Shown here piece after piece: positions 10,378-23,003 of a stretch of DNA of 23,003 nucleotides. Source of the DNA: a virus. Every line of letters starts with the position of its first letter. Within the stretch, counting starts at the first letter, position 1. The stretch lies in IMG/VR virus record IMGVR_UViG_3300045912_000110, positions 1 to 23,003 of that record. The stretch is one strand, 5' to 3'. A program made the position numbers and the translations under genes. A model generated the notes under the pieces. It was given only the letters and a program-made list of their open reading frames with translations. It searched no databases and had not been told where the DNA came from.

Positions 10378-10637
10378 CATTTATAAAAGAGCGAATCAAA
10401 AGGAAATTACCAACACTTACATCTGATGAAATAGATCAGATATTTGAAGTGCTATCAGAGCTTGGTGTAATTAATAATAAGGTTGAATATCGTTACCAGA
10501 TATTTAAATTCTATAAAGATCTATCTGAGCATTACAACAGAATGAACCTTAGTAAGAAGTGCGGAATACTGGATACGATGCAACACTTTAAAATAAGTCA
10601 GGCACATCTTTATAGGATCATATCCGAGTTCTCATAA
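10374..10637 (+). CDS. Small helix-turn-helix-like protein
   Basis: An 87-residue all-helical protein that starts in an ATGA overlap with the tape measure gene. The C-terminal part (ILDTMQHFKISQAHLYRIISEF) has the spacing and residue types of a helix-turn-helix: first helix, a turn around FKIS, then a recognition-like helix QAHLYRIISEF. The N-terminal part (IKERIKRKLPTLTSDEIDQIFEVLSELGV) is helical with a basic start. It may bind DNA and regulate the downstream head genes; just past its end lies a TTCTCAT-AAAA-ATGAGAA palindrome. I do not recognise a named family, and a structural or chaperone role is possible. Confidence 0.5.
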   Translation: MTFIKERIKRKLPTLTSDEIDQIFEVLSELGVINNKVEYRYQIFKFYKDLSEHYNRMNLSKKCGILDTMQHFKISQAHLYRIISEFS

Positions 10638-10668
10638 AAATGAGAATTGTTTATACAAAAAATGAGAA
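10629..10668. promoter_or_regulatory. Palindrome plus direct repeat of ATGAGAA (candidate operator)
   Basis: TTCTCAT (10629-10635) and ATGAGAA (10640-10646) form a perfect 7-bp inverted repeat with an AAAA centre, straddling the stop codon of the small HTH-like gene. A further copy of ATGAGAA lies at 10662-10668, 22 bases on, about two helical turns. It could be a protein-binding site for the neighbouring HTH-like protein, or simply a weak hairpin at the mRNA end. The rest of the 87-base gap is AT-rich without a clear promoter. Confidence 0.35.
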
Positions 10669-10715
10669 CAGAAGTACTATTTATTATTTAAATACTTTTT
10701 ATCTTTTACCTAAAT

Positions 10716-10737
10716 TGTCCTCACATGTTAGAGGACA
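10716..10737 (+). promoter_or_regulatory. Hairpin holding the start codon of the protease gene in its loop
   Basis: TGTCCTC (10716-10722) pairs perfectly with GAGGACA (10731-10737); the 8-base loop contains the ATG at 10725. In mRNA this would present or mask the initiation codon and could tune translation of the prohead protease. Confidence 0.4.
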
Positions 10738-11837
10738 TTTTCATTTACTCGCATATCGGAGACGGTGGTATTACCGCTGAATATATCAGGAAGCAACTTG
10801 CAAAGACCGGCAAGGATGTTACTGTGCATATTAATTCAGGCGGTGGTGATGTATATGAAGGATATACAATCTATAATCTTTTTAAAAGTTCCGGCAAGAA
10901 TATAACAATGGTAGTAGAGGGGCTCTGCGCTTCAATAGCGACACTAATTGTTTGTGCCGGGAATAAGATTATAATGAATCCTACCTCTCAGTTTATTATC
11001 CATAACCCCTTCACAAAAGTAGAAGGCGATGCGGAGCTACTTAGAAAGGTAGCCAATGAGTTGGATAAGATTAAATCAACAATTATACAGGCTTATAAAA
11101 TCAGAACCGGGAAGACAGAGGAAGAGCTTTGGTTATTAATGAATAATGAGACTTCTTTCAGTGCTTCAGAAACGAAGGATTTTGGGTTTGCCGACGAGGT
11201 TTCGCAAACATTAAAAGCAGTTGCTTACATAGATATTTCGAAATTAAAAACAGAGAAAACAATGGAACAGAAATTTTTAGATGCCTTTAATAATTTATCA
11301 GCAAAAATAGAAGCAGTTCTAAAGATTAAGCCTAAAAATCTTTCTGCTACCCTAGCAGACGGAACAGAGGTTTTTATTGAAACAGAAAGCGAAAGCGAAT
11401 TGCAAGGTAAGGCTATTTTTATTGTCACATCAGAAGGACAGCAACCGGCTCCCGATGGGGATTACACTCTTGCAAATGGAACAGTGGTTTCAGTTAAAGG
11501 GGGTGTAATTATTGCGGTTACTATGCCGGAAGCAAATAAAGCAACTGAAGAGGTTGAAAACCTGAAGAAGGAAATTGAAAACCTAAAGACTCAACTAGCA
11601 GACAAGGATAAGGCTTTGCAAAATAAAACTGCTGAGGCCGAAAGCGTGAAAGCTGAATCAGAGAAAGTAATGAATCAGTTGAAAGAGTTTAAAAATGAAT
11701 TCGACAAGATCAGAAACACGGTAGTAGGTGGGGATACGCCTCCTTTAAAAAAACCACAAACTGTAATAGAGCAGAGAAAGCAGGGTCAAGGCCTATTTGA
11801 TTTCTGGGCAAAGGAAATTAATAAGGCATATAATTAA
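10725..11837 (+). CDS. ClpP-type prohead maturation protease fused to scaffold
   Basis: A 370-residue protein. Residues 1-175 are an S14/ClpP-like serine peptidase: HINSGGGDVYEGYTIYNLF (35-53), the nucleophile Ser70 in GLCASIATLIVCAG and His93 in IIHNPF, with the third catalytic residue expected near NNETSFSASETKDFGFADEV. In phages this protease trims the scaffold and capsid during prohead maturation. The C-terminal half is scaffold-like: a linker, a small beta domain (ADGTEVFIETES, then APDGDYTLANGTVVSVKGG), a heptad-rich coiled coil (ATEEVENLKKEIENLKTQLADK) and a basic tail. An in-frame ATG at 11262 could produce scaffold alone. The major capsid gene follows 61 bases later, as expected. The start lies in the loop of a hairpin (10716-10737). 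Confidence 0.88.
   Translation: MLEDIFIYSHIGDGGITAEYIRKQLAKTGKDVTVHINSGGGDVYEGYTIYNLFKSSGKNITMVVEGLCASIATLIVCAGNKIIMNPTSQFIIHNPFTKVEGDAELLRKVANELDKIKSTIIQAYKIRTGKTEEELWLLMNNETSFSASETKDFGFADEVSQTLKAVAYIDISKLKTEKTMEQKFLDAFNNLSAKIEAVLKIKPKNLSATLADGTEVFIETESESELQGKAIFIVTSEGQQPAPDGDYTLANGTVVSVKGGVIIAVTMPEANKATEEVENLKKEIENLKTQLADKDKALQNKTAEAESVKAESEKVMNQLKEFKNEFDKIRNTVVGGDTPPLKKPQTVIEQRKQGQGLFDFWAKEINKAYN
11262..11837 (+). CDS. Possible nested scaffold protein (internal start)
   Basis: An in-frame ATG at 11262 (MEQKFLDAFNNL) lies exactly at the border between the peptidase domain and the scaffold half. Initiation here would yield a 191-residue scaffold with a beta domain and coiled coil, analogous to Nu3 within lambda C. 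The bases before it are A-rich (GAGAAAACA), which suits Bacteroidota initiation, but there is no strong ribosome binding site. Evidence is positional only. Confidence 0.35.
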   Translation: MEQKFLDAFNNLSAKIEAVLKIKPKNLSATLADGTEVFIETESESELQGKAIFIVTSEGQQPAPDGDYTLANGTVVSVKGGVIIAVTMPEANKATEEVENLKKEIENLKTQLADKDKALQNKTAEAESVKAESEKVMNQLKEFKNEFDKIRNTVVGGDTPPLKKPQTVIEQRKQGQGLFDFWAKEINKAYN

Positions 11838-11898
11838 AAACAATAAGACAAGCGCAGAGGTAGGAGTAAACTAAAATTTAACTCACTACATAATAATA

Positions 11899-12888
11899 AT
11901 GGCAGACATAATTACAGCAAACGGAGTAACGTACGATGGTAAGGAGACAATGGATGTTCTCCTTAAGCCAGCATTTCAGAATCCTGCATTAAATCAGATG
12001 TTCAGGATTATCACTGGAATTAAATCGAAGCAAAAACTTTATACCCTTGACCCGATCGCAAAGATCGTAAAGAAGTATCAGGGATGTGGTCTAAATATAA
12101 CTGGCAACGGTGTTAACATTGGTCAGAAATACATTGAGACAAAAGAAATGGAAGTGTATCTGGAAGAATGTGCAGATGCATTCAAAGGAATCATTTTCGA
12201 AGAATGGCTGAAGTCAGGCGTTGACGGAAACGACCTAACAGGAACACAGGTTCAGAAATTAATTGAGAAACTAGTAATGGAGGGTATCTCTCAGGACACA
12301 TTCAGGATTGCATGGTTCGGAGATGAAACTTCAATTGATCCCAATTATAATCAAATGGATGGTTTCTGGAAGTTGATCTATGAAAATGTAGAAGAATATT
12401 GTATAACTAAAGTTGATGATATTCCAGATGGGCCGCTTGGACAAGATGCAGCGCTAGGTTATCTAAAGAATTTGTACGAGCGTTGTTCGAATATTTTGAA
12501 ACAGGTTCCTGAGAATCAGAAAGATTTTAAAGTGACTGGCTCTATCTACGACAACCTTCTTTCTTCATACGAAAGTAAGAACGGCGGAACCTCAGAAATC
12601 CAGTTTAAAATGATAACTGATGGAGTAACCTCTCTTCAGTACAGAGGTATCAATGTAATGCCTTTAAGAAGTTGGGATACAATCATCGAAAGTGACTTCG
12701 CAGGAACTGACCCTCACCGTATTGTTTACGGAGCAAAAGACAACCTAGTGTTAGGTGTTGAAAAAGAATCTGACTTTACGAAGTCTAAATTCTGGTATTC
12801 TGACGATGACGACATGAATAAGATCCTTGTCAGATTTAAAATGGGTGCTCAATTAGTACACTGCGATCTTACCGCAGCGTCTTACTAA
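11899..12888 (+). CDS. Major capsid protein (HK97-fold, inferred)
   Basis: A 329-residue protein directly after the protease/scaffold gene, the canonical place for the major capsid protein. It opens with NGVTYDGKETMDVLLKPAFQNPAL, then a positively and negatively charged helical region, and a central domain with KDFKVTGSIYDNLLSSYESKNGG and GVTSLQYRGINVMPLRSWDTII. It ends in beta strands (NLVLGVEKESDFTKSKFWY, then KILVRFKMGAQLVHCDLTAASY), which resembles the end of the HK97 P- and A-domains in Bacteroidota phages, where YRGI and the RFKMGAQ strand are recurrent. The 60-base leader contains AGGTAGGAG too far from ATG 11899 to act as its ribosome binding site. The fold is inferred from context and pattern. 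Confidence 0.78.
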   Translation: MADIITANGVTYDGKETMDVLLKPAFQNPALNQMFRIITGIKSKQKLYTLDPIAKIVKKYQGCGLNITGNGVNIGQKYIETKEMEVYLEECADAFKGIIFEEWLKSGVDGNDLTGTQVQKLIEKLVMEGISQDTFRIAWFGDETSIDPNYNQMDGFWKLIYENVEEYCITKVDDIPDGPLGQDAALGYLKNLYERCSNILKQVPENQKDFKVTGSIYDNLLSSYESKNGGTSEIQFKMITDGVTSLQYRGINVMPLRSWDTIIESDFAGTDPHRIVYGAKDNLVLGVEKESDFTKSKFWYSDDDDMNKILVRFKMGAQLVHCDLTAASY

Positions 12889-12890
12889 TA

Positions 12891-12895
12891 GGAGG
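12891..12895 (+). promoter_or_regulatory. Strong Shine-Dalgarno deciding the tail tube start
   Basis: GGAGG lies five bases before ATG 12901. This supports ATG 12901 as the start over the in-frame GTG at 12895, which overlaps the motif itself. Most genes here lack such a site, so it probably supports high expression. Confidence 0.65.
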
Positions 12896-12900
12896 TGTAT

Positions 12901-13449
12901 ATGGCTACTAATTGCAGAGTTACCAACAGTATAGTCGCAGATTGTAACGACCTGAGAAGGGTCGGAGGCGTAAATAAAAGATTCTGGCTGTTTAACATGC
13001 CGGGAACCACATTTACAACTGATGCGAATGGATATTTGAATTCAATTTCATTCTCTGACGTGTATGATGGATTGTACGAATTTGAGGGAAAGAAAAAATC
13101 ACACTCCGGAGGGTACACAATTGTTACGCAGCCGGGAGGAAACACGTTCTTTCAGCATGATGTACTGGTTAAATTGATTTCAACAACTCCGTCCGACGAT
13201 GCAGTTATTGAACGAATGGCTGTAGCATCACCCGGGATAATTCTTGAAACGAATAATCAAGAATTCATTGTATTCGGGTATGGAAACGGTCTGGATATGA
13301 CAGCGGGAGTTCAGAACTCAGGTACTGAATCTGCGTCAGATATTACAGATCAATTAACGTTAACAGGAGAGGAGAGGGGTAAACCAAAAAGGTTCCTGAT
13401 CACTGATTACGAAACTACACTAGCCTATCTTGAATCGCTTGTCATATAG
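12901..13449 (+). CDS. Putative major tail tube protein
   Basis: A 182-residue beta-rich protein, 12 bases after the capsid gene and with a strong ribosome binding site, both signs of an abundant virion protein. The N-terminus (NCRVTNSIVADCNDLRRVGGVNKRFWLFN) resembles a widespread Bacteroidota phage structural family that opens with C-x-I-T-N-S-I-x-x-D-C and is generally taken as tail tube or major tail protein. The middle has GLYEFEGKKKSHSGGYTIV and a DAVIERMAVASPGIILETNNQEFIVFGYGNGLDM beta region, followed by a T/S/G segment and RFLITDYETTLAYLESLVI. A capsid decoration protein is the alternative. A strong terminator follows immediately. Confidence 0.5.
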   Translation: MATNCRVTNSIVADCNDLRRVGGVNKRFWLFNMPGTTFTTDANGYLNSISFSDVYDGLYEFEGKKKSHSGGYTIVTQPGGNTFFQHDVLVKLISTTPSDDAVIERMAVASPGIILETNNQEFIVFGYGNGLDMTAGVQNSGTESASDITDQLTLTGEERGKPKRFLITDYETTLAYLESLVI

Positions 13450-13453
13450 GGAA

Positions 13454-13486
13454 AAAAAATAGCGGCACATGTTGCCGCTATTTTTT
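13454..13486. terminator. Perfect bidirectional intrinsic terminator
   Basis: A flawless 14-bp stem (13454-13467 with 13473-13486) whose outer part is A6 against T6 and whose inner part is TAGCGGCA against TGCCGCTA, around a 5-base loop. Its symmetry means it can end transcripts from either side. It closes the capsid/tube unit and separates it from the glycosyltransferase cassette. Confidence 0.88.
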
Positions 13487-13518
13487 GACTTATAAAATTC
13501 CACGAGTTTGTAGAAAAT

Positions 13519-13719
13519 ATGATAGAAGAAGCAAAGCAAATTATTAAAGAAGGAGATCCCGGATTCTGGGCGAAGAATAAAGAAAATATTCTGAATGTTA
13601 ATAAGATGGGGAAGGTTTTTATTCATTTAACAGGAAAGAAAATAGATTGCACATGGTGTGCCAGATCTGAAATTTATAATTACTTAAAGAGGTGGTTAAA
13701 AGGAAATGGATACCTGTAA
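13519..13719 (+). CDS. Small hypothetical protein with CTWC motif
   Basis: A 66-residue protein, first gene after the terminator. It has an N-terminal acidic helix (EEAKQIIKEGDPGFW), a short KVFIHLTGKKIDCTWCARSEIYNYLKRWLKG core with a CTWC pair, and a basic end. One CxxC alone could be half a metal site or a redox pair. It overlaps the next gene by 14 bases, so it belongs to the glycosyltransferase-like cassette. I do not recognise a family; small proteins with a CxxCR...L..W pattern occur in phage structural operons without known role. Confidence 0.6.
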   Translation: MIEEAKQIIKEGDPGFWAKNKENILNVNKMGKVFIHLTGKKIDCTWCARSEIYNYLKRWLKGNGYL

Positions 13720-14389
13720 GATAATTCAGATTTATTACGACGATAAAAGTAAGGCTTCTTGTTATCCTGAATTCGAACATTTTCATAATGAAAAATGTAC
13801 ACCGTACTTTGAGAATAAAGTAATAATTGATCTGGTAAATTCAGGAAGACATAAAGAGGGTAAATACTTCGGAGTCTTTTCCGGAAACTTCCGCCATAAG
13901 ATAATGTACTCAAAGGATATGCAGCGCATAACACCTCAGTGTATTTATTCAAAGATTGGTAACTCGGATGTAATAAGCTTCTTTCGTCACCACCGCAATA
14001 AAAACATTGTTACTAAGGCTGAGATGTTTCATCCGGGATTTAAGAGGGCATTAAAAAATATTTTCGAACGGATAGGGTTTGAAATAAATCTGGAAGAAAA
14101 CACCCGGTTCATAGTATATCAGAATCACTTCATTGCAAAATCAGAGATATACGAAGACTACGTTAATAGTTTATTGGAGCCTGTTGTTAAAGAGATGGAG
14201 AATAAAGAAAACAAAGAGCTTCAGAATATCATCTGGCAGGACTCAAATTATCATAAGAAATATACGATGTCTGAAAAATTAAAGAGGGAGTTAGGTGTAA
14301 ACTATTATCCATATCATACATTTCTATGCGAAAGATTATTTTCAATTTATTTAAACAAAAACAAACATATCACATGCGAACACTTATGA
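13706..14389 (+). CDS. Glycosyltransferase-like protein, paralogue 1
   Basis: A 227-residue soluble protein. Recognisable blocks are YFGVFSGNFRHKI (about 53-65), FFRHHRNKN (92-100), MFHPGFKRALKNIFERIGF (107-125), NHFIAKSEIYEDYVNSLLEPV (about 140-161) and YPYHTFLCERLFSIYL (about 199-214). The N-(F/Y)-F-x-x-K-x-E-x-(Y/F)-x-x-Y-x-x-x-L-x-P motif and a late ER-(L/M)-F-S block recall capsule-type transferases such as DUF4422 proteins, so I infer a sugar transferase, with low certainty on the family. It is a clear paralogue of the gene at 14530, with the same blocks in the same order. It overlaps the gene before it by 14 bases and the following membrane peptide by an ATGA. Confidence 0.55.
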   Translation: MDTCKIIQIYYDDKSKASCYPEFEHFHNEKCTPYFENKVIIDLVNSGRHKEGKYFGVFSGNFRHKIMYSKDMQRITPQCIYSKIGNSDVISFFRHHRNKNIVTKAEMFHPGFKRALKNIFERIGFEINLEENTRFIVYQNHFIAKSEIYEDYVNSLLEPVVKEMENKENKELQNIIWQDSNYHKKYTMSEKLKRELGVNYYPYHTFLCERLFSIYLNKNKHITCEHL

Positions 14390-14502
14390 AGCGAATAAAA
14401 GATTTATTTATCTCGGCACTAATAGTTCCTGTTATTGGATTTTTAGTTGTGCTTGTAAAACTATTGTATTATCTCATTATCTATTGTTGGAATCTGATAT
14501 GA
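14386..14502 (+). CDS. Small membrane peptide (38 aa) between the paralogues
   Basis: A short gene beginning at ATG 14386, whose ATGA overlaps the stop of the previous gene, and ending at TGA 14500-14502. The product starts MKRIKDLF and then is almost wholly hydrophobic (SALIVPVIGFLVVLVKLLYYL, then IIYCWNLI), with one or two membrane helices and a positive N-terminus. The ATGA coupling argues that it is translated. It could anchor the glycosyltransferase-like proteins at the inner membrane or act as a holin-like or superinfection-exclusion peptide; nothing in the sequence decides between these. Confidence 0.5.
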   Translation: MKRIKDLFISALIVPVIGFLVVLVKLLYYLIIYCWNLI

Positions 14503-14529
14503 TTCATTTATGATTTTCGGAGAGAAAGC

Positions 14530-15201
14530 GTGAAGGTTTACCAGATATATTTTGAAGAATCGCAGCGAAGTAAATGCGTGTATATCCCGTATTTAAATGA
14601 AGATTGTACGGTATTCTTTGAGAACTCTGTTATCAGAAAGCTAGTTGAAGAAGAAAAGCACAAAGACAGTGATTATTTCGGTGTTGTCTCTTATCAGCTG
14701 ATTGATAAGATCGGAGTGATTAAAAATTGGAAGATAAAAAACATTGCAAATACTTCTGTAAATAAATTCACACCTGAATTATTTGAAAGAGAGCTATACA
14801 GGTACAAACCAGACGCAATGAGTTTTCAAAGGCATATACCTCACGATACAGTTACTTTTGCAGACAGGTTTCATCCTGATTTCTCAAAGTATTTCAAAGA
14901 GATAATGAATAAGATTGGTTACCAATGGAGGCCAATAATTTTTGAAAATGTTTTTTATTGTAATTACTTCGTAGCTAAATCAGAAATTTATGAAAGGTAT
15001 GTTTCTGAAATGCTTGCCCCGGCAATGGATGTTATGGAAGAAATGCCGGAATTGATGGGGAATAGCAATTATCCAAAAAAATTACCAGATAACCTGAATA
15101 AGTCATTTGGAATTAATCATTATCCTTACCATCCGTTCTTATGTGAGAGGATGTTCAGTTATTTCGCACATGTTCATAAACTACAATGCAAGCACTATTA
15201 A
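14530..15201 (+). CDS. Glycosyltransferase-like protein, paralogue 2
   Basis: A 223-residue protein paralogous to the gene at 13706: shared blocks are YFGVVSYQLIDKI, FQRHIPHDTV, RFHPDFSKYFKEIMNKIGY, NYFVAKSEIYERYVSEMLAP and YPYHPFLCERMFSYF. Divergence is large, so the duplication is old or the two copies were acquired separately. I chose the GTG at 14530 because GGAGAG lies six bases before it and no in-frame ATG precedes it after the TGA at 14500. An ATG at 14510 is in another frame and gives only seven codons. It overlaps the next gene by 16 bases. The role is inferred as a sugar transferase or a partner of the true transferases in this cassette. Confidence 0.55.
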   Translation: MKVYQIYFEESQRSKCVYIPYLNEDCTVFFENSVIRKLVEEEKHKDSDYFGVVSYQLIDKIGVIKNWKIKNIANTSVNKFTPELFERELYRYKPDAMSFQRHIPHDTVTFADRFHPDFSKYFKEIMNKIGYQWRPIIFENVFYCNYFVAKSEIYERYVSEMLAPAMDVMEEMPELMGNSNYPKKLPDNLNKSFGINHYPYHPFLCERMFSYFAHVHKLQCKHY

Positions 15202-15731
15202 CGAGTTCGGGAAGGTTTGATTTATTGTACACAACCCTTAATAGTCTGTATAGAGATCAGAAATATAAATTCTATACTACTATTTATGATGATGGGTTAT
15301 TAAAAATTGGTCAGCATAATTCTATTGAAGGGTTTATTCTTCCTAAGCATGATAAATATTATTTACACCTGGAAGACGACTGGATCTTTAATAACTCATA
15401 CGACTGGATAAGTGAAAGTATAAAAATAATGGAGGCAGACGAAAAAATTATTAAAGTAATTTGCCGGGAAGATATTTCGCACCCTGTTGAGTTTAAAGAT
15501 GGTTACGGAATTCTTAAATATTGGATTGATCCTTGGAAAAACAATGAATGGTTTGGTTTCGGATGGAATCCAGGTGTAACCCGATGCGATTTATTAAAGA
15601 ATTTTATTCCCTTCCCTAAATGGGAACAAGAACTTTCAAAACAAATTTATGAGGCAGGATATAAAGTTGCAGCTTTAGAAAGAGGTGTTTGCAGACACAT
15701 AGGACAAGGAAGGAGTACACATGCGAATTAG
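15186..15731 (+). CDS. GT-A-type glycosyltransferase (EDDW motif)
   Basis: A 181-residue protein with a GT-A, family-2-like layout: TSSGRFDLLYTTLNSL at the N-terminus (6-21), YDDG (34-37), the metal/nucleotide-sugar acidic motif LHLEDDWIF with EDD at 63-65, then NEWFGFGWNPGVTRCDLL and a C-terminal acceptor-side block YKVAALERGVCRHIGQGRST. Such compact transferases occur in phages and move a sugar from an activated donor. Here it probably modifies a virion or host surface component in the cytoplasm. It is shorter than most GT2 enzymes but has all the core blocks. It overlaps both neighbours (16 and 11 bases). Confidence 0.78.
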   Translation: MQALLTSSGRFDLLYTTLNSLYRDQKYKFYTTIYDDGLLKIGQHNSIEGFILPKHDKYYLHLEDDWIFNNSYDWISESIKIMEADEKIIKVICREDISHPVEFKDGYGILKYWIDPWKNNEWFGFGWNPGVTRCDLLKNFIPFPKWEQELSKQIYEAGYKVAALERGVCRHIGQGRSTHAN

Positions 15732-16407
15732 TATGTTCTTTATTAACTGGAATGATTCTTTCTACCTTCCATTTATTAAGAAGCACTATAGTTATTGTAA
15801 TAAGATAGTTATGTATGATAATTATTCTACTGATAATTCCATTATTATTGCAAAAAGCTTAGGCATGGAGGTCAGGATGTTCGGGAAACCGGGAGAGCTG
15901 AATGATCAATATTATCTGGATGTAAAAAATCATTGCTGGAAAGAAGAAAGAAATAAGTCTGATTACGTGATAGTGTGCGATGCGGATGAATTTCTGAAAC
16001 TGGATAATTTAAAACTAACTTCTTCCTGCCCGACCGTTAAGGGTTATAACATGATTTCAAATTCACTCCCTATTAATTTAATTACAGAGATAAACACAGG
16101 ATATGAAGACGAAAATTATTCGAAGCAGGTAATATTTAATCCGGATATGGTAAGAGAGATTAATTACGTTCACGGATGCCATAAGAATAATAAAATAGGA
16201 AATATAACAACTCATGATAATGTAAAATTACTTCATTATCGTATGATTGGAGGCGTTGACAGGATGATTGAAAGGCACTTTATATATAAGAAGAGAATGA
16301 GTAAATTTAATTTAAAACATCGGATGGGACACCACTATTTACATGAATCAGAGGCAAAAAAAAACGAATGGAATTATTTAAAAACTAAAGCAAAAGAACT
16401 ATGGTAA
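15721..16407 (+). CDS. GT-A-type glycosyltransferase (DAD motif, family-2-like)
   Basis: A 228-residue protein. The N-terminus MRISMFFINWNDSFYLPFIKKHY is followed by YDNYSTDNS (32-40), the hallmark nucleotide-binding turn of Glyco_tranf_2_4/GT92-like enzymes, and VIVCDADEFL with DAD at 87-89. The C-terminal half has VHGCHKN and LLHYRMIGG, as in that group, where the late His helps metal or donor binding. It starts at ATG 15721 with AAGGAGT a few bases upstream. It overlaps the previous gene by 11 bases and the next by 7, so it is cotranslated with the cassette. Confidence 0.82.
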   Translation: MRISMFFINWNDSFYLPFIKKHYSYCNKIVMYDNYSTDNSIIIAKSLGMEVRMFGKPGELNDQYYLDVKNHCWKEERNKSDYVIVCDADEFLKLDNLKLTSSCPTVKGYNMISNSLPINLITEINTGYEDENYSKQVIFNPDMVREINYVHGCHKNNKIGNITTHDNVKLLHYRMIGGVDRMIERHFIYKKRMSKFNLKHRMGHHYLHESEAKKNEWNYLKTKAKELW

Positions 16408-17150
16408 TTAATCAATTTCACAGCATCGGAGATATTTTATTTATAGAGCCGATTTTAAGACACTATTGGAAACTTAACGGAGATAAACCAATTCTACCAG
16501 TCAGGGATCACTTAATGTATCTTCAGAATTATATTGAATCAGCGAGATTAGTTCCTATGTCTCAATTCGTTTTGGATTATGAATCAATGGAAACAACCAA
16601 TCCTGATTATCTTCCTTTGCGATTTGCGAATCAGATTTTAAGGAATAAAGATAAAGACGATCATTCAGATTATAAGAATTGTATGCCCGATAAGTATAAT
16701 TTATGTGGGCTGAATCCTGATATGTGGATGAATCTGGATGTAAAGTTTAATGAAGGAAAGGGCAACGCGTTGTTTAATCAACTTGGGTTAAAAGATGGAG
16801 AAGAATATATATTGGTTAATGAGCATTCTCAGGCGGGAAGGGTAGAAATTAAATTGAATCCTAATTGTAGAGTCTTATACATGGAATCAATTCCCGGATA
16901 CTCCGTTATTGACTGGTGGTATGTTATTTTAAATGCTAAAGAAAATCACCACGTAAGCACCTGCACCTTTTATCTGTTTCAGGCGATTGCAAATAAGTTT
17001 AATTTCAAATCAAAAGTGTTTATCTATCCAAGGCCGGATGAAAGTGGAATCAAGGGAGTTCTAAAATTAAATACCGGTTTCAAAGTAAAATTCAGGAAAA
17101 TAAATTCTCAAGAAAATGAGAATGAAAAACAGGAAAATAGCAGTCAATAA
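16401..17150 (+). CDS. GT-B-type (heptosyltransferase-like) glycosyltransferase
   Basis: A 249-residue protein. The N-terminus INQFHSIGDILFIEPILRHYW matches the glycine-poor variant of the GT9/heptosyltransferase opening (…x-x-G-D-I-L-x-x-x-P-x-L). The second half has EEYILVNEHSQAGRVEIKL, then VIDWWYVILNA and HHVSTCTFYLFQAIANKF, which corresponds to the donor-binding region of GT-B enzymes (the VST/C-T-x-x-x-x-x-x-A element). It is shorter than typical 320-350-residue heptosyltransferases, as is usual for phage versions. The C-terminus is a charged, low-complexity tail rich in N, E, Q and K. It ends the cassette; the stop lies inside a hairpin at 17134-17161. Confidence 0.68.
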   Translation: MVINQFHSIGDILFIEPILRHYWKLNGDKPILPVRDHLMYLQNYIESARLVPMSQFVLDYESMETTNPDYLPLRFANQILRNKDKDDHSDYKNCMPDKYNLCGLNPDMWMNLDVKFNEGKGNALFNQLGLKDGEEYILVNEHSQAGRVEIKLNPNCRVLYMESIPGYSVIDWWYVILNAKENHHVSTCTFYLFQAIANKFNFKSKVFIYPRPDESGIKGVLKLNTGFKVKFRKINSQENENEKQENSSQ

Positions 17151-17161
17151 ATAGCTATTTT
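17134..17161 (+). terminator. AT-rich hairpin at the end of the glycosyltransferase cassette
   Basis: AAAATAGC (17134-17141) and GCTATTTT (17154-17161) form a perfect 8-bp inverted repeat with a 12-base loop, followed by a short T-rich stretch. It lies between the last transferase and the portal gene. The stem is weak, so it may only attenuate transcription. Confidence 0.35.
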
Positions 17162-17166
17162 TAATT

Positions 17167-18435
17167 GTGAAAAAGCATACACGATATAAGGTTCACAACC
17201 TGCAAGCGCAACCTGCTCCTGAAAGTAAGAAGGATACCAGTATAGGTATTCTAGACTGGGGCATTAATAATAATCGACCTCAGAAGATTATGGAAGCTGT
17301 CTATGGAAGCCCAACTGCTTCTGCGTGTATGGACACATATATTGATTTTCTGGAAGGGGATGGAATTTTACAAAAAGAATTGGCTGAATTTAAGGTAAAC
17401 AGAAATCAAACGCTTGATGATTTACACCATTTAGTTTCTCACGACGAAGGGTATTTTGAAGGATTTGCAATTCTTGTAAAATATAACCCAATGGGAGAAA
17501 AGATTTCATTGGAAAATTTACCAATGGAAAGTGTGAGGCTAGGAATACCAGATGACACAGGTTTTATTTCCAAGATTCATTATAACCCTTACTTTGGAAC
17601 TTCTGATTATAAGCAATCACAAACAGTAATTTATAATGTTTACAATCCCGATAAGGGTGTTGTGATGTCGCAAATAAGGGATCAGGGAGAGAACTTCAAA
17701 GGTCAGGTTTATTTCTTTGCTCATGAAAAACCTTTTGTTAGATTTTATCCGGAACCATTTTATTCAGCTGGAATAAAATGGTTTATAATAGATGGGAAAA
17801 TCGGTGTTTTCCATGAAAAAAACATTGACAATAATTTTTTATTGTCTGTTCTAATAAAGATGGTTGGAGATCCTGATGAAGCATTAGAGAAGGATAAAGA
17901 AGGTAAAGTTACACTGACAGTTGGTGAGTCGTTTGATAAAATGCTTTCAAAAACTTTCAGTGGAGCGGATAAGGGAGGCATGGTGATGGTTCTTTGGTCT
18001 AAGCTTAAAGACCAGTTCCCGGAGCTTCAGGAATTTCCGTCTAGAACTAACCACGAATTATTTATCGCATTACAGCAATTAACTGTTGACAATATTTCTA
18101 TTGCTACCAAAGTCCCCCCGATCCTTGCCAACATACAGGTATCAGGAAAGCTTGGTAACTCACAGGAAATTGTTAACTCAATAAAAATGATGCAAGGGAG
18201 GGTTAATAAGAAGCAACGTGCATTAGAAAGGATTTATAAAGAGTTATTGACAGGATTTAAGGATGTTCCGGCAAACTACAATGATCTAGTAATTAAAAAC
18301 GTGAATATTATAAATATGATTCCTCCGGAGGCATGGGAGTCTTTAACAACAGAGGAGAAAAGGAAGTTTATTGAGAATAATTACGATATTGAACTAATAG
18401 ATACGCAACCAACGCAGGCTCCAAATGTTTTGTAG
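17167..18435 (+). CDS. Phage portal protein
   Basis: A 422-residue portal: the dodecameric ring at one capsid vertex through which DNA enters and leaves. After a short basic start it shows ILDWGINNNRPQKIMEAVYGSPTASACMDTY (28-58), the standard portal opening with W-G-x-N-x-x-P and a following helix. It continues with beta-rich wing segments, FFAHEKPFVRFYPEPFYSAGIKWF, a clip/stem helix region NNFLLSVLIKMVG, and a crown-side segment NISIATKVPPILANI-x-x-SGKLGNSQEIVNSIKMM typical of portals. The start is GTG 17167; the first in-frame ATG falls inside the conserved opening at about codon 42. The protein ends in a Thr/Gln/Pro tail. The next gene overlaps by 11 bases. Confidence 0.85.
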   Translation: MKKHTRYKVHNLQAQPAPESKKDTSIGILDWGINNNRPQKIMEAVYGSPTASACMDTYIDFLEGDGILQKELAEFKVNRNQTLDDLHHLVSHDEGYFEGFAILVKYNPMGEKISLENLPMESVRLGIPDDTGFISKIHYNPYFGTSDYKQSQTVIYNVYNPDKGVVMSQIRDQGENFKGQVYFFAHEKPFVRFYPEPFYSAGIKWFIIDGKIGVFHEKNIDNNFLLSVLIKMVGDPDEALEKDKEGKVTLTVGESFDKMLSKTFSGADKGGMVMVLWSKLKDQFPELQEFPSRTNHELFIALQQLTVDNISIATKVPPILANIQVSGKLGNSQEIVNSIKMMQGRVNKKQRALERIYKELLTGFKDVPANYNDLVIKNVNIINMIPPEAWESLTTEEKRKFIENNYDIELIDTQPTQAPNVL

Positions 18436-18934
18436 AACATTATTTATATCGCAGGAAGACTTTCAGAATCGTGTAGATTTGAGCGGCAATGTATTGTCAA
18501 AATACATTATTCCTAACATAGCGATTGTTCAGGATAGATATATCAGGAAAATACTTTGCGATGATTTTTACAATGAATTAATTAATCAGATTAATTCAGA
18601 TACGCTTACACCAGACAATAAAACTCTAGTTGATAATTATATTAAACCTGCAATGGTGTATAGGTCATACGCCCGATATGTGGCAACCGCAAACGTGTAC
18701 AGTAGTGTGTCAGGGTTAAGGAAGTACAAAGAAGATGATAGCGATGCAGCCGAAAGAGACGACTTGATTCCATTAATAAAGCAGGCAGAAAGTGACGCAA
18801 CATTTTATGAGCGTGAACTTATAGAGTTTCTGGATAACAATGAAGACAGCTATCTTACGTGGAAAAATAAGTGTAAATGTAATAATATTAAATCTGCTAC
18901 AAACTTTAAGTTTAGCAGAATAGGAAAATCATAA
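18425..18934 (+). CDS. Head-tail connector/adaptor protein
   Basis: A 169-residue mostly helical protein directly after the portal. FISQEDFQNRVDLSGNV at the N-terminus, DDFYNELINQ, then a central helix KPAMVYRSYARYVATANVYSS and KYKEDDSDAAERDDLIPLI fit the Bacteroidota head-tail connector family DUF6712 (gp6-like adaptor), which forms a ring below the portal. The C-terminus has a conserved-looking WKNKCKCNN block. It starts at ATG 18425, overlapping the portal by 11 bases, and ends in a TAATG overlap with the next gene. Confidence 0.72.
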   Translation: MFCRTLFISQEDFQNRVDLSGNVLSKYIIPNIAIVQDRYIRKILCDDFYNELINQINSDTLTPDNKTLVDNYIKPAMVYRSYARYVATANVYSSVSGLRKYKEDDSDAAERDDLIPLIKQAESDATFYERELIEFLDNNEDSYLTWKNKCKCNNIKSATNFKFSRIGKS

Positions 18935-19389
18935 TGATTACAATAAATCAAAATTCTGAAAATAGAATAATACTTAATGTGTCAACCAGTGTTTCAAATC
19001 CTTATTTTCTTATAAGGTTCACCAATTGTACAATCAATATTTCAACTATTGCTCTGTTTAAAACGCAATCGGATTTTGGTTTTTATATTATTAATATAAT
19101 TGAGGTTGGACAAAACGGAATAGAGGATAAGGTAAATGGTAAATTAAAATTAGGGCCAACGGGAAATTGGCAGAGTGAGGTTTGGGCACAGGCAAGTTCT
19201 ACGAATCTAAATCCAAACATGGCAGACGAATATTTGGGAGATATGGAGACGGTTGTAATTGGCACTAGCTGTGGATATAATTCGGATAATGACTCATGTC
19301 CAACTATATTAGAAATTAACGGCGGTGATTCAGGTGGTGATTCACAATTCATAGAGATAAACGGATTATTGGATGGATGTAATTCATAA
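18934..19389 (+). CDS. Tail/baseplate accessory protein, fibre-associated
   Basis: A 151-residue beta-rich protein. TINQNSENRIILNVSTSVSNPYFLIRFTN at the start and GPTGNWQSEVWAQASSTNLNP in the middle match a recurrent Bacteroidota phage structural family with a PSGxWxYxIYxQxSSTNLD-like motif, usually next to tail fibre genes. The C-terminus is a Ser/Gly/Asp-rich stretch (NGGDSGGDSQFIEINGLL). The exact role is unknown; a fibre connector or baseplate part is likely. It starts in a TAATG overlap with the adaptor gene and ends in another with the fibre gene. Confidence 0.58.
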   Translation: MITINQNSENRIILNVSTSVSNPYFLIRFTNCTINISTIALFKTQSDFGFYIINIIEVGQNGIEDKVNGKLKLGPTGNWQSEVWAQASSTNLNPNMADEYLGDMETVVIGTSCGYNSDNDSCPTILEINGGDSGGDSQFIEINGLLDGCNS

Positions 19390-20705
19390 TGGCAACACGA
19401 ATTAAGTTACGAAGAGATACCAATGCAAATTGGGGAACTAATAACCCAATCCTTCAGTCGGGGGAGATTGGTATTGTAATAGACTCTGCAACCGATAGTG
19501 AGAAATTAAAGATAGGTGACGATGTCACACCTTGGAACGACTTGAGTTTTTTTTCCCCGGGAGGTATATCAGTAATTGAGTGGGGGGGTATTACAGGAGA
19601 TATTTTAAATCAAACAGACTTACAGAATTTATTTGATTTAAAATTAAATCTATCTGGTGGAGATATGACCGGAGATCTCAACATGGGAGGCAATAGCATA
19701 ACAGGCATTGCCAATATTGATTCAGTTGCAACAGGGGGAACCGATGAAATTAATATCGGGCCTATAAATGCCAATGTAGTAAATATCGGAAGGTCGGGGG
19801 AAGCGGTTAATATACTTACTAATCTCAACATGATGGCTAATGATATTACCGATGTAGCCGGTATAAAAATAGAAGCTGGCACTTTAGCAGATAACGAAAA
19901 TGCTTTATCTATAACCGCAACTATGCCAACTACTGCTGCGGCAGTTAATAATGCGATAAACATTGAGATTGCCAGTGCGGGTAATTCATCATTTAACAAC
20001 AGAGCTGTTTTAGTTCAGTATAAAGAAGGATATACAGGGATAAGTCCTACGATAGGCGCAGAGGTAACCAATTCGGCGGCCTCGACCGGGAGCGACATAA
20101 CTACCACTAATGGCAATAACGCGATTTTAGGGAACTGCAACGGTACTACCACAGGAAGCAATACAGGGGGCAGGTTTATTTCACAAAATGCGAACCTGAA
20201 TATTGGCGTAATAGGATTATCTATTACGGCAAAAAACAATGCTATTAATGGCGGAGGGGTGTTTATAGGAAGAAATACAGGAACAACGCCTATTGAGTTT
20301 GGTGTTTATGCAGGCCTGAGCGCTTCAGGCCCAACACTAGTGAGCGCTGCGCTTATTGCGGATAACTCTAATTCTACCTCGCCAATAGCTCTGTTCAGGG
20401 ACAACGGAATTACCATGTGGAGTATTACTGATGGCGGGACACTCAACGCTGCAGACGGAAGAAATATTGCAGTCGGCATAAATGCCGGGACTAGGATCGG
20501 AACTTCTACCTCGCAAAAAATTGGGTTTTGGAACGCAACCCCAATTGTTCAACCCTCTTCTACCGGTGAGACATCCGGGTTTACTGCTGGTTCTGGTTCT
20601 GCTGTCAATAATGGTTCAACTTTTACCGGGAACGTTGGGACAAGAGCATATACAATAGGAGATATAGTTAAGCACCTTAAAAGTGCGGGGATATTAGCTA
20701 GTTAA
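19389..20705 (+). CDS. Tail fibre with MTD-type N-terminal domain
   Basis: A 438-residue receptor-binding fibre. Residues about 3-55 (IKLRRDTNANWGTNNPILQSGEIG, then KLKIGDDVTPWNDL) match the N-terminal domain of the phage major tropism determinant/hyaluronate-lyase-like fibre family that attaches to the baseplate. Next are beta-helix or triple-fibre segments with LSGGDMTGDLNMGGNSITGI and repeats rich in Gly, Asn, Thr and Ala, and a C-terminal block TSQKIGFWNATPIVQP-…-AYTIGDIVKHLKSAGILAS, a common end of Bacteroidota phage fibres. There is no C-type lectin variable region and no reverse transcriptase in this window, so this is not a visible diversity-generating element. The start overlaps the previous stop (TAATG). 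Confidence 0.85.
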   Translation: MATRIKLRRDTNANWGTNNPILQSGEIGIVIDSATDSEKLKIGDDVTPWNDLSFFSPGGISVIEWGGITGDILNQTDLQNLFDLKLNLSGGDMTGDLNMGGNSITGIANIDSVATGGTDEINIGPINANVVNIGRSGEAVNILTNLNMMANDITDVAGIKIEAGTLADNENALSITATMPTTAAAVNNAINIEIASAGNSSFNNRAVLVQYKEGYTGISPTIGAEVTNSAASTGSDITTTNGNNAILGNCNGTTTGSNTGGRFISQNANLNIGVIGLSITAKNNAINGGGVFIGRNTGTTPIEFGVYAGLSASGPTLVSAALIADNSNSTSPIALFRDNGITMWSITDGGTLNAADGRNIAVGINAGTRIGTSTSQKIGFWNATPIVQPSSTGETSGFTAGSGSAVNNGSTFTGNVGTRAYTIGDIVKHLKSAGILAS

Positions 20706-20723: not shown

Positions 20724-20915
20724 ATGAAAAACGGATTAACTATTGAGCAGCATTTTAAGAACGTTGAGGTGGCAGTGATTAAAGCAGTCGGAACCTTCGA
20801 TGAATTAAATGCAATTAGAAACAGTTTCTTAACGATAAAGGAATATGTTGTAAGGCTTGAAAAAGAAATCAAAGAGTTTGAAATCAAAGGCGAAAATGAG
20901 TCAAAAGATAGTTGA
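20724..20915 (+). CDS. Small coiled-coil hypothetical protein
   Basis: A 63-residue, strongly helical and charged protein (TIEQHFKNVEVAVIKAVGTFDELNAIRNSF, then a KEYVVRLEKEIKEFEIKGENESK tail with heptad spacing). No catalytic motif or signal peptide. It lies 18 bases after the fibre gene, and its end overlaps the endolysin start by 20 bases, so it belongs to the fibre/lysis unit. A fibre chaperone or an endolysin regulator is possible; the sequence does not decide. Confidence 0.55.
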   Translation: MKNGLTIEQHFKNVEVAVIKAVGTFDELNAIRNSFLTIKEYVVRLEKEIKEFEIKGENESKDS

Positions 20916-21360
20916 TATTGCCCGGAAGGAATTAGGGTATAAAGAATTTCCTGCTAATTCGAACAAGACCAAGTATGGTAAATGGTTTGGGCTGGATGGC
21001 GTGGCATGGTGTGCCATATTCGTTTCATGGTGTTATGATAAGGCAGGTTATCCATTAGGTAATATTGGTTTCCCAAAAGGTTTCGCAGGGTGTCAGACAG
21101 GGTTTGCGCATTGGAGTAAAACTAAAGAGATTACCAAAGATCCGCAGCCGGGGGACATTGTTTTATTTGATTGGAATAAAGATGGCAGGTATGACCACGC
21201 CGGGATATTTATAAAAGACTTAGGCAATGGATATTTCCAAACCATCGAAGGCAACACGAGTGCAACCAATCAAAGTAATGGGGGAGAGGTTCAGGAAAGA
21301 AAAAGAAAATACGACTGTGCAATATTTATACACCCTAAAATACTAAACATAAAAAAATGA
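20896..21360 (+). CDS. Endolysin, CHAP-type amidase/peptidase
   Basis: A cell-wall hydrolase of 154 residues. The helix IVDIARKELGY leads into a CHAP domain with the nucleophile Cys39 in VAWCAIFVSWCYDKAG, the general base His101 in GRYDHAGIF, and the polar third residue around Glu119/Asn121 in TIEGNTS. This fold cuts peptidoglycan amide bonds at host lysis. ATG 20896 is preferred over upstream in-frame codons: it places the standard N-terminal helix at the start, whereas an earlier start adds an implausible poly-Lys/Ser stretch. It overlaps the small upstream gene by 20 bases, and its stop overlaps the holin-like gene as ATGA. No signal peptide is visible, so export would need the holin. Confidence 0.87.
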   Translation: MSQKIVDIARKELGYKEFPANSNKTKYGKWFGLDGVAWCAIFVSWCYDKAGYPLGNIGFPKGFAGCQTGFAHWSKTKEITKDPQPGDIVLFDWNKDGRYDHAGIFIKDLGNGYFQTIEGNTSATNQSNGGEVQERKRKYDCAIFIHPKILNIKK

Positions 21361-21557
21361 GAAAGCTAAAATTCGGTATCGGAGGTCGAAATTTTCCTAT
21401 GCCTTGGAAGGTTGAAAAGGTAGTGACCTCAATTAAGGCTATATTATTGGTTGTGTCAGGGCATCAATACGTCTCCGACAATAGTAAGCTTGCTTTTTGG
21501 TTGTTAGTCGGCGGGGCTGTTGTCGACCAAGTGAGTAAATACTTTTATGAAGAATGA
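21357..21557 (+). CDS. Small membrane protein, candidate holin
   Basis: A 66-residue protein between endolysin and spanin-like gene, with ATGA overlap on both sides. A basic N-terminus (KLKFGIGGRNFPMPWKVEKV) leads into hydrophobic helices SIKAILLVVSG and LAFWLLVGGAVVDQVSKYF, giving one or two membrane spans. Its position in a compact lysis cassette suggests a holin that permeabilises the inner membrane, but no holin family motif is recognisable, so the assignment rests on context. Confidence 0.55.
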   Translation: MRKLKFGIGGRNFPMPWKVEKVVTSIKAILLVVSGHQYVSDNSKLAFWLLVGGAVVDQVSKYFYEE

Positions 21558-21952
21558 AATACGCCCTTTATATAGCGATAGGGATTTTAATTCTTTCTTC
21601 CTGTGGCCAAAGGGCATGGACAAAGAGAGGAAAAAAAAGAGGTTGGATAAAATCAGAGATTAAATACGATACCGTTTATACGGACTCCGTTTTCAAAGAT
21701 ACGGTTTTCCTGTTCGGCCGGATCCGGGACACGGTAATTTTAAAAGAGGATAAATTAACCGTAAAGTACTTTTATAACAGAAAGGATTCTACTGTTTATT
21801 TATCCGGGGAATGCGATAAAGACACCCTGATAGTTGAAAAAGAAATTATCCGGGTAGAAACTAAAGAAGGATTTTACTGGAAAACACATATGATCGGATT
21901 CCTGTTAGTAGCCTTAATTATTCTTTTGGTATTTTTTAGATTTTCAAAATAG
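21554..21952 (+). CDS. Lipoprotein with C-terminal membrane helix, candidate u-spanin
   Basis: A 132-residue protein that starts in the ATGA overlap with the holin-like gene. The N-terminus has a hydrophobic signal and a lipobox LSSC with lipidated Cys17. A charged, beta-prone periplasmic region follows (TDSVFKDTVFLFGRIRDTVILKEDKL and similar KDTL/DTV repeats). The C-terminus is a membrane helix MIGFLLVALIILLVFF ending in a short basic tail. An outer-membrane lipoprotein anchor at one end and an inner-membrane helix at the other is the definition of a unimolecular spanin, which fuses the two membranes in the last step of lysis. Position last in the lysis block fits. It also shows that the host is Gram-negative. 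Confidence 0.72.
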   Translation: MKYALYIAIGILILSSCGQRAWTKRGKKRGWIKSEIKYDTVYTDSVFKDTVFLFGRIRDTVILKEDKLTVKYFYNRKDSTVYLSGECDKDTLIVEKEIIRVETKEGFYWKTHMIGFLLVALIILLVFFRFSK

Positions 21953-22040
21953 TTCTTTTAGTACTATAAATAAATACTATATAATATTGATTAATATAGA
22001 ATTTGTCTATATATTGAAAAATTAAAAAGCCAGTTATGGG

Positions 22041-22077
22041 ACCGTTCCGGGGTAATAGCCGGGGCGGTTTTTTATTT
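22041..22077 (+). terminator. Strong intrinsic terminator after the lysis genes
   Basis: A 10-bp GC-rich stem (ACCGTTCCGG with CCGGGGCGGT, two G-U pairs) around an 8-base loop, followed by TTTTTTATTT. It ends the late operon 89 bases after the spanin-like gene. Confidence 0.88.
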
Positions 22078-22190: not shown

Positions 22191-22207
22191 AATAGGGTTT
22201 ATATTTG
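22177..22207 (+). promoter_or_regulatory. Bacteroidota-type promoter for the repeat-protein gene
   Basis: The -7 element TATATTTG (22200-22207) matches TAnnTTTG fully; a -33 element TTTA (22177-22180, three of four for TTTG) lies 19 bases upstream, the known optimal spacing. It is 27 bases before ATG 22234 and downstream of the late terminator. The rest of the 281-base gap (21953-22233) holds no gene that I can support. Confidence 0.6.
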
Positions 22208-22233: not shown

Positions 22234-23003
22234 ATGAAAGAAATTATCGTTAACACACAGAAAGAACTGGATGAAATACCTCTTAACTATGACGGATATA
22301 TCTATATTGAAGGAGGTGATTATGATAATCCACTTATTTTAAAAGTAAAATTCGACCGGGCCTATGTAGTAACCAGAGGTAAAGCTGTCATAGAGATGCT
22401 GGGAAACTCACAGGTAAAAAAGATGAGAGAAAACTCACAGGTGAAGGTGATGAGAGAAAACTCACAGGTGGATGTGATGAGAGAAAACTCACAGGTGAAA
22501 GAGATGAGAGAAAACTCACAGGTGAAAGAGATGTGGGAAAACTCACAGGTGAATATGATGAGAGAAAACTCACAGGTGGATATGATGAGAGAAAACTCAC
22601 AGGTGAAGGTGATGTGTGAAAACTCACAGGTGAATGAGATGAAAGAAAACTCACAGGTGGATGAGATGCTGGGAAGCTCACAGGTGAATGTGATGCTGGA
22701 AAACTCACAGGTGAATGAGATGCGGGGAAGCTCACAGGTGGATGAGATGTGGGGAAACTCACAGGTGGATGTGATGCTGGGAAGTTCACAGGTGAATATG
22801 ATGTGGGGAAGCTCACAGGTGAATGCGATGTGGGGAAGCTCACAGGTGAATGAGATGCTGGAAAGCTCACAGGTAAAAGAGATGCTGGGAAGCTCACAGG
22901 TGAAGGTGATGCGGGAAAACTCACAGGTGAATGAGATGTGGGAAAACTCACAGGTGAATGAGATGCTGGGAAGCTCACAGGTGAATGAGATGAAAGAAAA
23001 CTC
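22234..23003 (+). CDS. Tandem nonapeptide-repeat protein (3' truncated by window edge)
   Basis: The frame opens at ATG 22234 and runs off the window after 256 codons. Residues 1-56 form a cap (MKEIIVNTQKELDEIPLNY, then YIYIEGGDYDNPLILKVKF and two degenerate repeat-like turns RAYVVTRG and KAVIEMLG). From residue 57 there are 22 complete 9-residue units of the form [E/G][N/S]SQV[K/N/D]xM[R/L/W/K], without indels, plus the start of a 23rd. SQV and M are invariant, so they probably face the core of a beta-solenoid, while positions 1, 2, 6, 7 and 9 vary and face outward. Similar N-terminal caps with short repeats occur in Bacteroidota proteins of unknown function. It has its own promoter and lies beyond the late terminator, so it is a moron, part of another phage module, or flanking host DNA. 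Function unknown. Confidence 0.75.
   Translation, partial: MKEIIVNTQKELDEIPLNYDGYIYIEGGDYDNPLILKVKFDRAYVVTRGKAVIEMLGNSQVKKMRENSQVKVMRENSQVDVMRENSQVKEMRENSQVKEMWENSQVNMMRENSQVDMMRENSQVKVMCENSQVNEMKENSQVDEMLGSSQVNVMLENSQVNEMRGSSQVDEMWGNSQVDVMLGSSQVNMMWGSSQVNAMWGSSQVNEMLESSQVKEMLGSSQVKVMRENSQVNEMWENSQVNEMLGSSQVNEMKEN
22402..23003 (+). repeat. 27-bp coding minisatellite, at least 22 units
   Basis: Units of exactly 27 bp with an invariant TCACAG core and an invariant ATG, in frame with the repeat-protein gene. Early units (2-7) mostly share GAAAAC before the core and AGA after ATG; later units mix GGAAGC and CTG/TGG. The array continues past the window edge. Confidence 0.93.

What the first reader, a model, noticed from the sequence alone, without database searches (positions are those of the whole stretch)
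22234..23003. Nonapeptide-repeat protein with fixed SQV..M core and variable surface codons
All 22 complete units have exactly nine codons, three adjacent residues and one Met are invariant, and variation is confined to five positions. Units 2-7 are nearly identical, so the array is still expanding or homogenising. The pattern is what one expects of a solenoid whose exposed face is diversified by repeat recombination, possibly for binding or phase/length variation, or for neutralising a host factor.
Basis: partly seen in the sequence, partly recalled or inferred. Interest (0 to 1): 0.62.

Follow-up and report, generated by a model that had tools for sequence, protein, structure and literature searches.

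The report
Phage protein with hypervariable nonapeptide array
The window ends inside a phage gene that encodes a long row of near-identical nine-residue repeats; in relatives such rows keep changing in length and in a few chosen residues, next to a domain shared with a known phage anti-immunity protein, so they are probably fast-evolving tools against bacterial defences.

Summary
From 22405 there are 22 in-frame nine-codon units, SQV and M are invariant, and variation falls at five codons. The gene (22234 to the contig end) is cut at its 3' end. It follows the lysis genes of a Bacteroidota phage, behind a terminator and a Bacteroidota-type promoter motif.

Relatives complete the picture: an N-terminal KELDxIPxxYDGYIYIEGG cap, an 8- or 9-residue repeat array, and a C-terminal DUF7666-type domain. 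That domain also occurs in the anti-Gabija protein Gad2 and, weakly, in RIIB. Relatives lie in early, recombination or lysogeny regions; two have a macrodomain gene overlapping the array gene.

The arrays behave unusually. In 33 of 36, replacement diversity exceeds fourfold-silent diversity. Pseudomonas phage relatives with 86-100% identical N-terminal DNA carry 9-28 units (complete genes), differing at one di-residue drawn almost only from NR, DY and YQ. Two metagenomic contigs with >99% identical flanks differ by a four-unit block. The E. coli relative YdhT behaves ordinarily.

Best reading: an intracellular, early counter-defence or takeover protein with a repeat rod diversified by unit recombination under selection. 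The target is unknown. The AlphaFold2 solenoid is plausible, but AF2 overpredicts such folds.

The parts
22038..22071 (+). intrinsic-terminator-like hairpin ending the lysis-gene transcription unit
   Evidence: 13-pair stem with T tail; 2 sites found in the region against 0.1 expected
22200..22207 (+). TATATTTG, fits the Bacteroidota -7 promoter consensus TAnnTTTG, 27 bases before the start codon
   Evidence: pattern found at 22200; the consensus is from general knowledge; 7 such sites on the + strand of the window, so weak on its own
22234..23003 (+). array gene, ATG start, 3' end cut by the contig end
22234..22404 (+). N-terminal cap domain (KELDxIPxxYDGYIYIEGG), residues 1-57
   Evidence: 57% identical in L029, 33-54% identity to the other rows of A7, 12 loci in viral contigs
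22405..22998 (+). 22 complete nonapeptide units [N/S]-S-Q-V-x-x-M-x-[E/G]
22999..23003 (+). start of unit 23, cut by the contig end
   Evidence: sequence
21554..21952 (+). upstream neighbour: short protein with N-terminal ISSC lipobox-like start and C-terminal hydrophobic segment, probably spanin-like
   Evidence: sequence only; no Pfam match above cut-off
20857..21360 (+). upstream neighbour: endolysin
   Evidence: PHROG endolysin families, best E 8e-27

Best explanation
The gene encodes an intracellular, early-expressed phage protein made of an N-terminal cap, a rod of nonapeptide repeats (probably a beta-solenoid, two units per 18-residue coil) and, beyond the contig end, probably a DUF7666-type C-terminal domain. 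The rod displays a few variable side chains per unit, taken from a small alphabet. Units are duplicated, deleted and exchanged by recombination, and selection keeps the displayed residues diverse while silent sites stay homogenised. The most likely job is counter-defence or host takeover: the rod binds, or decoys for, a bacterial target that differs between hosts, and the DUF7666-type domain supplies the common activity or docking. Shown: the array, its composition, its relatives, their length changes, the replacement/silent contrast, the domain relationships and the neighbourhoods of relatives. Inferred: solenoid fold, exposure of the variable residues, the missing C-terminus, early expression, selection as the cause, and the function.
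For: Three-part architecture in every complete relative with the same cap. C-terminal domain is DUF7666-type in 7 of 9 members at E<=0.5, mostly below the Pfam cut-off singly, and aligns with Gad2, a verified anti-Gabija protein (tblastn 36% identity E 6e-5, homologue in BUCT083 E 1e-6; hhalign 96.7%; Gad2 as anti-Gabija: PMC11263360, PMC12904381), and with RIIB families (KVP40 RIIB hhalign 89%). A macrodomain gene overlaps the array gene in L030 and L034, DarG-like in L034 (PADLOC E 2e-22). Neighbours are repressor, recombination, SSB and methylase genes. Replacement diversity above fourfold-silent diversity in 33 of 36 arrays; the same alternatives (E/V, R/W, G/E or G/D) recur on different codons. 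Length change with near-identical flanks. Three di-residues cover 132 of 144 units in nine Pseudomonas genes, 49 expected if independent. The relative YdhT shows neither feature.
Against: No function has been tested. The link to defence is by domain and neighbourhood; the DUF7666-type domain's own activity is unknown, and Gad2's N-terminal part is quite different. The window copy lacks its 3' end, so its C-terminal domain is assumed. In the window array alone the silent/replacement contrast is weaker (pN/pS 0.85; 0.191 against 0.087). A neighbouring solenoid array in L020 shows the same silent-fixed pattern, so it may be common to young phage repeat arrays. AF2 overpredicts beta-solenoids for repeats (PMC11795689). 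The 36 arrays are not all independent.
Confidence: 0.5

Rival explanations
1. A structural spacer: the array is a rod of adjustable length between two working domains, and the residue alternatives (E/V, R/W, G/E) merely avoid stacking like charges or aggregation. There is no variable target.
For: The array length varies widely; the alphabets are small and mix charged with neutral residues; the same repeats sit behind different N-terminal domains.
Against: Unit order shows no consistent two-unit (coil) periodicity, which an anti-stacking rule would predict. The relative YdhT keeps one length and ordinary silent divergence. Fixed di-residue cassettes NR/DY/YQ are more specific than charge mixing needs.
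Confidence: 0.22
2. No special selection: young arrays expand from a few founder units that happened to differ at a few codons, and unequal crossing-over homogenises the rest. The pattern is repeat turnover, with no functional diversification.
For: Adjacent units are more alike than shuffled; block duplication is seen; L031 has six identical units; an unrelated neighbouring array in L020 shows the same pattern.
Against: Founder units differing at several codons should differ at silent sites too, yet fourfold diversity is zero in most arrays. The same residue alternatives recur with different codons in different phages.
Confidence: 0.2
3. A virion or surface protein: a fibre or adhesin whose solenoid face is varied to follow receptors.
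For: Beta-helix folds are common in tailspikes and adhesins; the window gene lies close to the late genes.
Against: A terminator separates it from the late unit; relatives sit among repressor, recombination and methylase genes; no signal peptide in the sequence; no PHROG match for the window protein.
Confidence: 0.06

Closest known systems
DUF7666 repeat proteins of Pseudomonas phages (PHROG 4433; e.g. QDB70960.1 of vB_PaeP_YA3)
   Same: DUF7666-type domain plus a nonapeptide array with a hypervariable pair of residues, array length differing between near-identical phages, gene next to the CI repressor.
   Different: DUF7666 is at the N-terminus, the repeat is SNTGxxSAA, and the KELD cap is absent. 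Function unknown.
Gad2, anti-Gabija protein of SPbeta-like Bacillus phages
   Same: Its C-terminal domain aligns with the C-terminal domain of relatives of the window protein.
   Different: Its N-terminal part has no repeat array and looks like a nucleotidyltransferase (sequence; Pfam gives nothing). No Gabija test exists for the array proteins.
RIIB (T4-like phages)
   Same: C-terminal region shares the DUF7666-type signature.
   Different: KVP40 RIIB has a weak HTH-type N-terminus and no array; similarity is weak.
E. coli YdhT
   Same: Nonapeptide repeats and C-terminus related to the Pseudomonas phage proteins (NCBIfam E 3e-19; BLASTP 8e-11).
   Different: Chromosomal; units diverged in the ordinary way (0.51 replacement, 0.66 silent); covered over at least 80% of its length in 5362 of 5426 E. 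coli genomes.
TAL effector repeats
   Same: What it works like, perhaps: near-identical units, variation at one or two residues from a small alphabet, order and number differ between relatives (general knowledge).
   Different: 33-35-residue helical units that bind DNA; no relation tested or claimed.

Membership tests
cap + repeat array + DUF7666-type phage proteins (the family defined here by L029, L030, L032, L034, L048, L053, L054) | N-terminal KELDxIP...GxIYIExG cap | tested here: met
cap + repeat array + DUF7666-type phage proteins (the family defined here by L029, L030, L032, L034, L048, L053, L054) | 8- or 9-residue tandem units with fixed core and few variable positions | tested here: met
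cap + repeat array + DUF7666-type phage proteins (the family defined here by L029, L030, L032, L034, L048, L053, L054) | C-terminal DUF7666-type domain | not testable with these tools
   the window record ends inside the array; nearest complete relatives L029 and L048 have it
RTX nonapeptide repeats (GGxGxDxUx) | glycine/aspartate calcium-binding turn in each nonamer | tested here: not met
   consensus [NS]SQVxxMx[EG] lacks it; the phmmer hit to CyaA chains is weak and compositional
Pentapeptide repeat proteins | period of five residues, A(D/N)LxX | tested here: not met
   period is exactly nine; no Pfam pentapeptide match
Diversity-generating retroelement target | reverse transcriptase nearby and adenine-directed changes | tested here: inconclusive
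   no RVT_1 match in the window record, but the record is a fragment; the alternatives include C/T, A/T and G/A pairs, which does not look adenine-directed
Gad2 (anti-Gabija) | N-terminal nucleotidyltransferase-like part | tested here: not met
   the window protein has cap and array instead
Gad2 (anti-Gabija) | inhibits Gabija | not testable with these tools
   needs a plating test
Beta-solenoid proteins | regular stacked beta coils | tested here: inconclusive
   AF2 pLDDT 94, VIA-align Z 18.5 to antigen 43, but AF2 is unreliable for this class (PMC11795689)

The most novel reading that the evidence does not exclude
The arrays are modular, code-like recognition rods: each unit reads one element of a linear or repetitive host target through its variable residues, as TAL effector repeats do with DNA, and phages rewrite the code by recombining units to follow changing bacterial defences.
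Probability: 0.12. Interest if true: 0.92.

Novelty: new variant of a known kind. Interest (0 to 1): 0.6.

Why it matters
If right, phages of several unrelated host groups (Bacteroidota, Clostridia, Pseudomonas) carry a largely undescribed class of early proteins whose repeat rods evolve by cassette shuffling under diversifying selection, joined to a domain found in a verified anti-defence protein. That would give a family-level handle for finding counter-defence genes, and a natural example of a rewritable repeat scaffold. No paper found in the searched library describes it; that library is partial.

Tried and rejected
Direct protein searches with the full window protein failed because the tool needs exact short peptides; DNA patterns and the cap alignment worked instead. 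One viral scan was wasted on a pattern with a frame error of mine. The portal query found no close relative in viral contigs, and no window gene matches the fetched loci by tblastn, so there is no synteny evidence. A cap search in 391 genomes of one class found nothing, without a positive control. Weak Pfam hits of the array (eIF-1a, TraG) are below cut-off and look compositional. An ADP-ribosyltransferase-like fold for the C-terminal domain (Foldseek row 7zhl, E 4.4) was considered because of the macrodomain neighbour, but is unsupported: the profile found nothing among PDB sequences, and the VIA-align list, filled by the solenoid, shows no such chain. A coil-periodic order of units was tested and not found. 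The array in L020 that I meant as a control showed the same pattern, so YdhT was used instead; YdhT is an old chromosomal array and therefore not a matched control for young arrays.

Full report
What is there. The window is a 23-kb virus record of a Bacteroidota phage: its portal protein matches Bacteroides, Phocaeicola, Parabacteroides and Cellulophaga phages. Tape-measure, head protease, portal and endolysin genes are recognisable, and a small lipoprotein-like gene (21554-21952) follows the endolysin. After a terminator (22038-22071) and a TATATTTG motif at 22200, a new gene starts at 22234 and runs off the contig. It has a 57-residue N-terminal part and then 22 complete nonapeptide units.

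What varies. SQV and M never vary. Five codons do, each with a small alphabet: N/S, K/N/D, E/V/M/K/A, R/L/W/K/C, E/G. Silent sites barely vary. Cut at the N/S codon, each of the 22 units is distinct.

Relatives. A search with the whole protein found none. A degenerate DNA pattern for two SQVxxM units found 14 viral and 6 bacterial-genome stretches. Their proteins carry the same nonamer, mostly behind quite different N-terminal domains. The window's own N-terminus was found in viral contigs by a peptide search, a DNA pattern and a six-row alignment. Every complete one has three parts: the cap, an 8- or 9-residue array, and a C-terminal domain of the Pfam DUF7666 type. In Pseudomonas phages the same type of domain comes first, followed by a SNTGxxSAA array. 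Several contigs, like the window, end inside the array, which is expected of a repeat longer than short reads.

How the arrays change. L054 and L055 are 99.4-99.9% identical over the aligned flanks but carry 18 and 14 units, differing by one four-unit block (both are metagenome assemblies, so an assembly error is possible). In Pseudomonas phages and plasmids with 86-100% identical N-terminal DNA the arrays have 9 to 28 units in complete, intact genes, in different orders (a further record is cut inside the array, and one frameshifted relative, TC7, is left out); two plasmids differ in one unit only. One di-residue varies, and 132 of 144 units in nine of these genes use NR, DY or YQ, against 49 expected if its two residues were independent. 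Across 36 arrays, diversity at first and second codon positions averages 0.113 against 0.031 at fourfold sites, and exceeds it in 33; the arrays are not all independent, so the p-values printed there are too small. Each phage has its own fixed codons, yet the same alternatives recur: E/V, R/W, G/E or G/D. The chromosomal relative YdhT does the opposite: 0.51 against 0.66, and it is covered over at least 80% of its length in 5362 of 5426 E. coli genomes. The window array by itself gives a weaker signal (pN/pS 0.85 by an NG86-type count; 0.191 against 0.087 at fourfold sites). A second solenoid-type array next to the one in L020 shows the same silent-fixed pattern, so the pattern may belong to young phage arrays more widely.

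Structure. AlphaFold2 gives a regular solenoid with one five-residue strand per unit and pLDDT 94; a complete relative gives cap, solenoid and a separate C-terminal domain at pLDDT 86. The nearest solved folds are beta-helices such as antigen 43 and a bacterial antifreeze protein. This must be discounted: AF2 makes confident but unrealistic beta-solenoids from repeats (PMC11795689). That two units make one coil, and that the variable residues point outwards, are my inferences from strand spacing and from the invariant V and M; no coordinates were available.

Function. The C-terminal domain is the lead. It aligns with the C-terminus of Gad2, a verified anti-Gabija protein (PMC11263360) whose mechanism is unknown (PMC12904381), and with RIIB proteins. 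Two relatives have a macrodomain gene overlapping the array gene, in one case DarG-like. Other neighbours are recombination, repressor and methylase genes. In L017 the order is tail, M15 endolysin, spanin-like gene, array, YqaJ recombinase, the same lysis-then-array order as here. I therefore favour an early counter-defence or takeover protein with a variable rod. This is inference from association, and the spacer and neutral-turnover rivals remain open.

Novelty. The named families are domains of unknown function, and no paper found describes the array behaviour (a partial library). I rate it a new variant of a known kind: hypervariable tandem-repeat proteins are known, this phage class apparently is not. 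The likeness to TAL effectors is an analogy only.

Noticed in passing
window 19389-20705: 438-residue protein with an Mtd_N domain (PF18454, E 3e-9), the N-terminal domain of the major tropism determinant, so probably a receptor-binding protein; no reverse transcriptase in the window.
   Followed up: partly
window 9699-9820: 54-bp tandem repeat, 2.3 copies, 92% matches, inside the tape-measure gene.
   Followed up: no
window 7885-20705: Gene order on one strand is tape measure, then head protease, then portal, then the Mtd-like protein, then lysis: tail before head, which is unusual.
   Followed up: no
L020 2342-2911: Gene just upstream of the nonapeptide-array gene encodes another solenoid-type array (NA[Q/W]VYG, Pfam YdcK solenoid, E 1e-18) with no silent variation and Q/W/R alternation.
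   Followed up: partly
L043 (Pseudomonas phage TC7) 2501-3475: The array gene is frameshifted inside the array and loses its usual C-terminus; it is annotated as an ATPase.
   Followed up: no
L030 3157-3639 and L034 8985-9431: Macrodomain genes overlap the 3' end of the array gene; the one in L034 matches PADLOC DarG, a candidate anti-DarTG function.
   Followed up: partly
L012/L016 and L013/L021: Two viral contigs (41 kb and 40 kb) appear to have both ends inside the same kind of array, as if the array were the only unresolved part of a circular genome.
   Followed up: no
L024 and L026 (Clostridium porci): One bacterial genome carries two array genes of the same type with different arrays on two contigs.
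   Followed up: no
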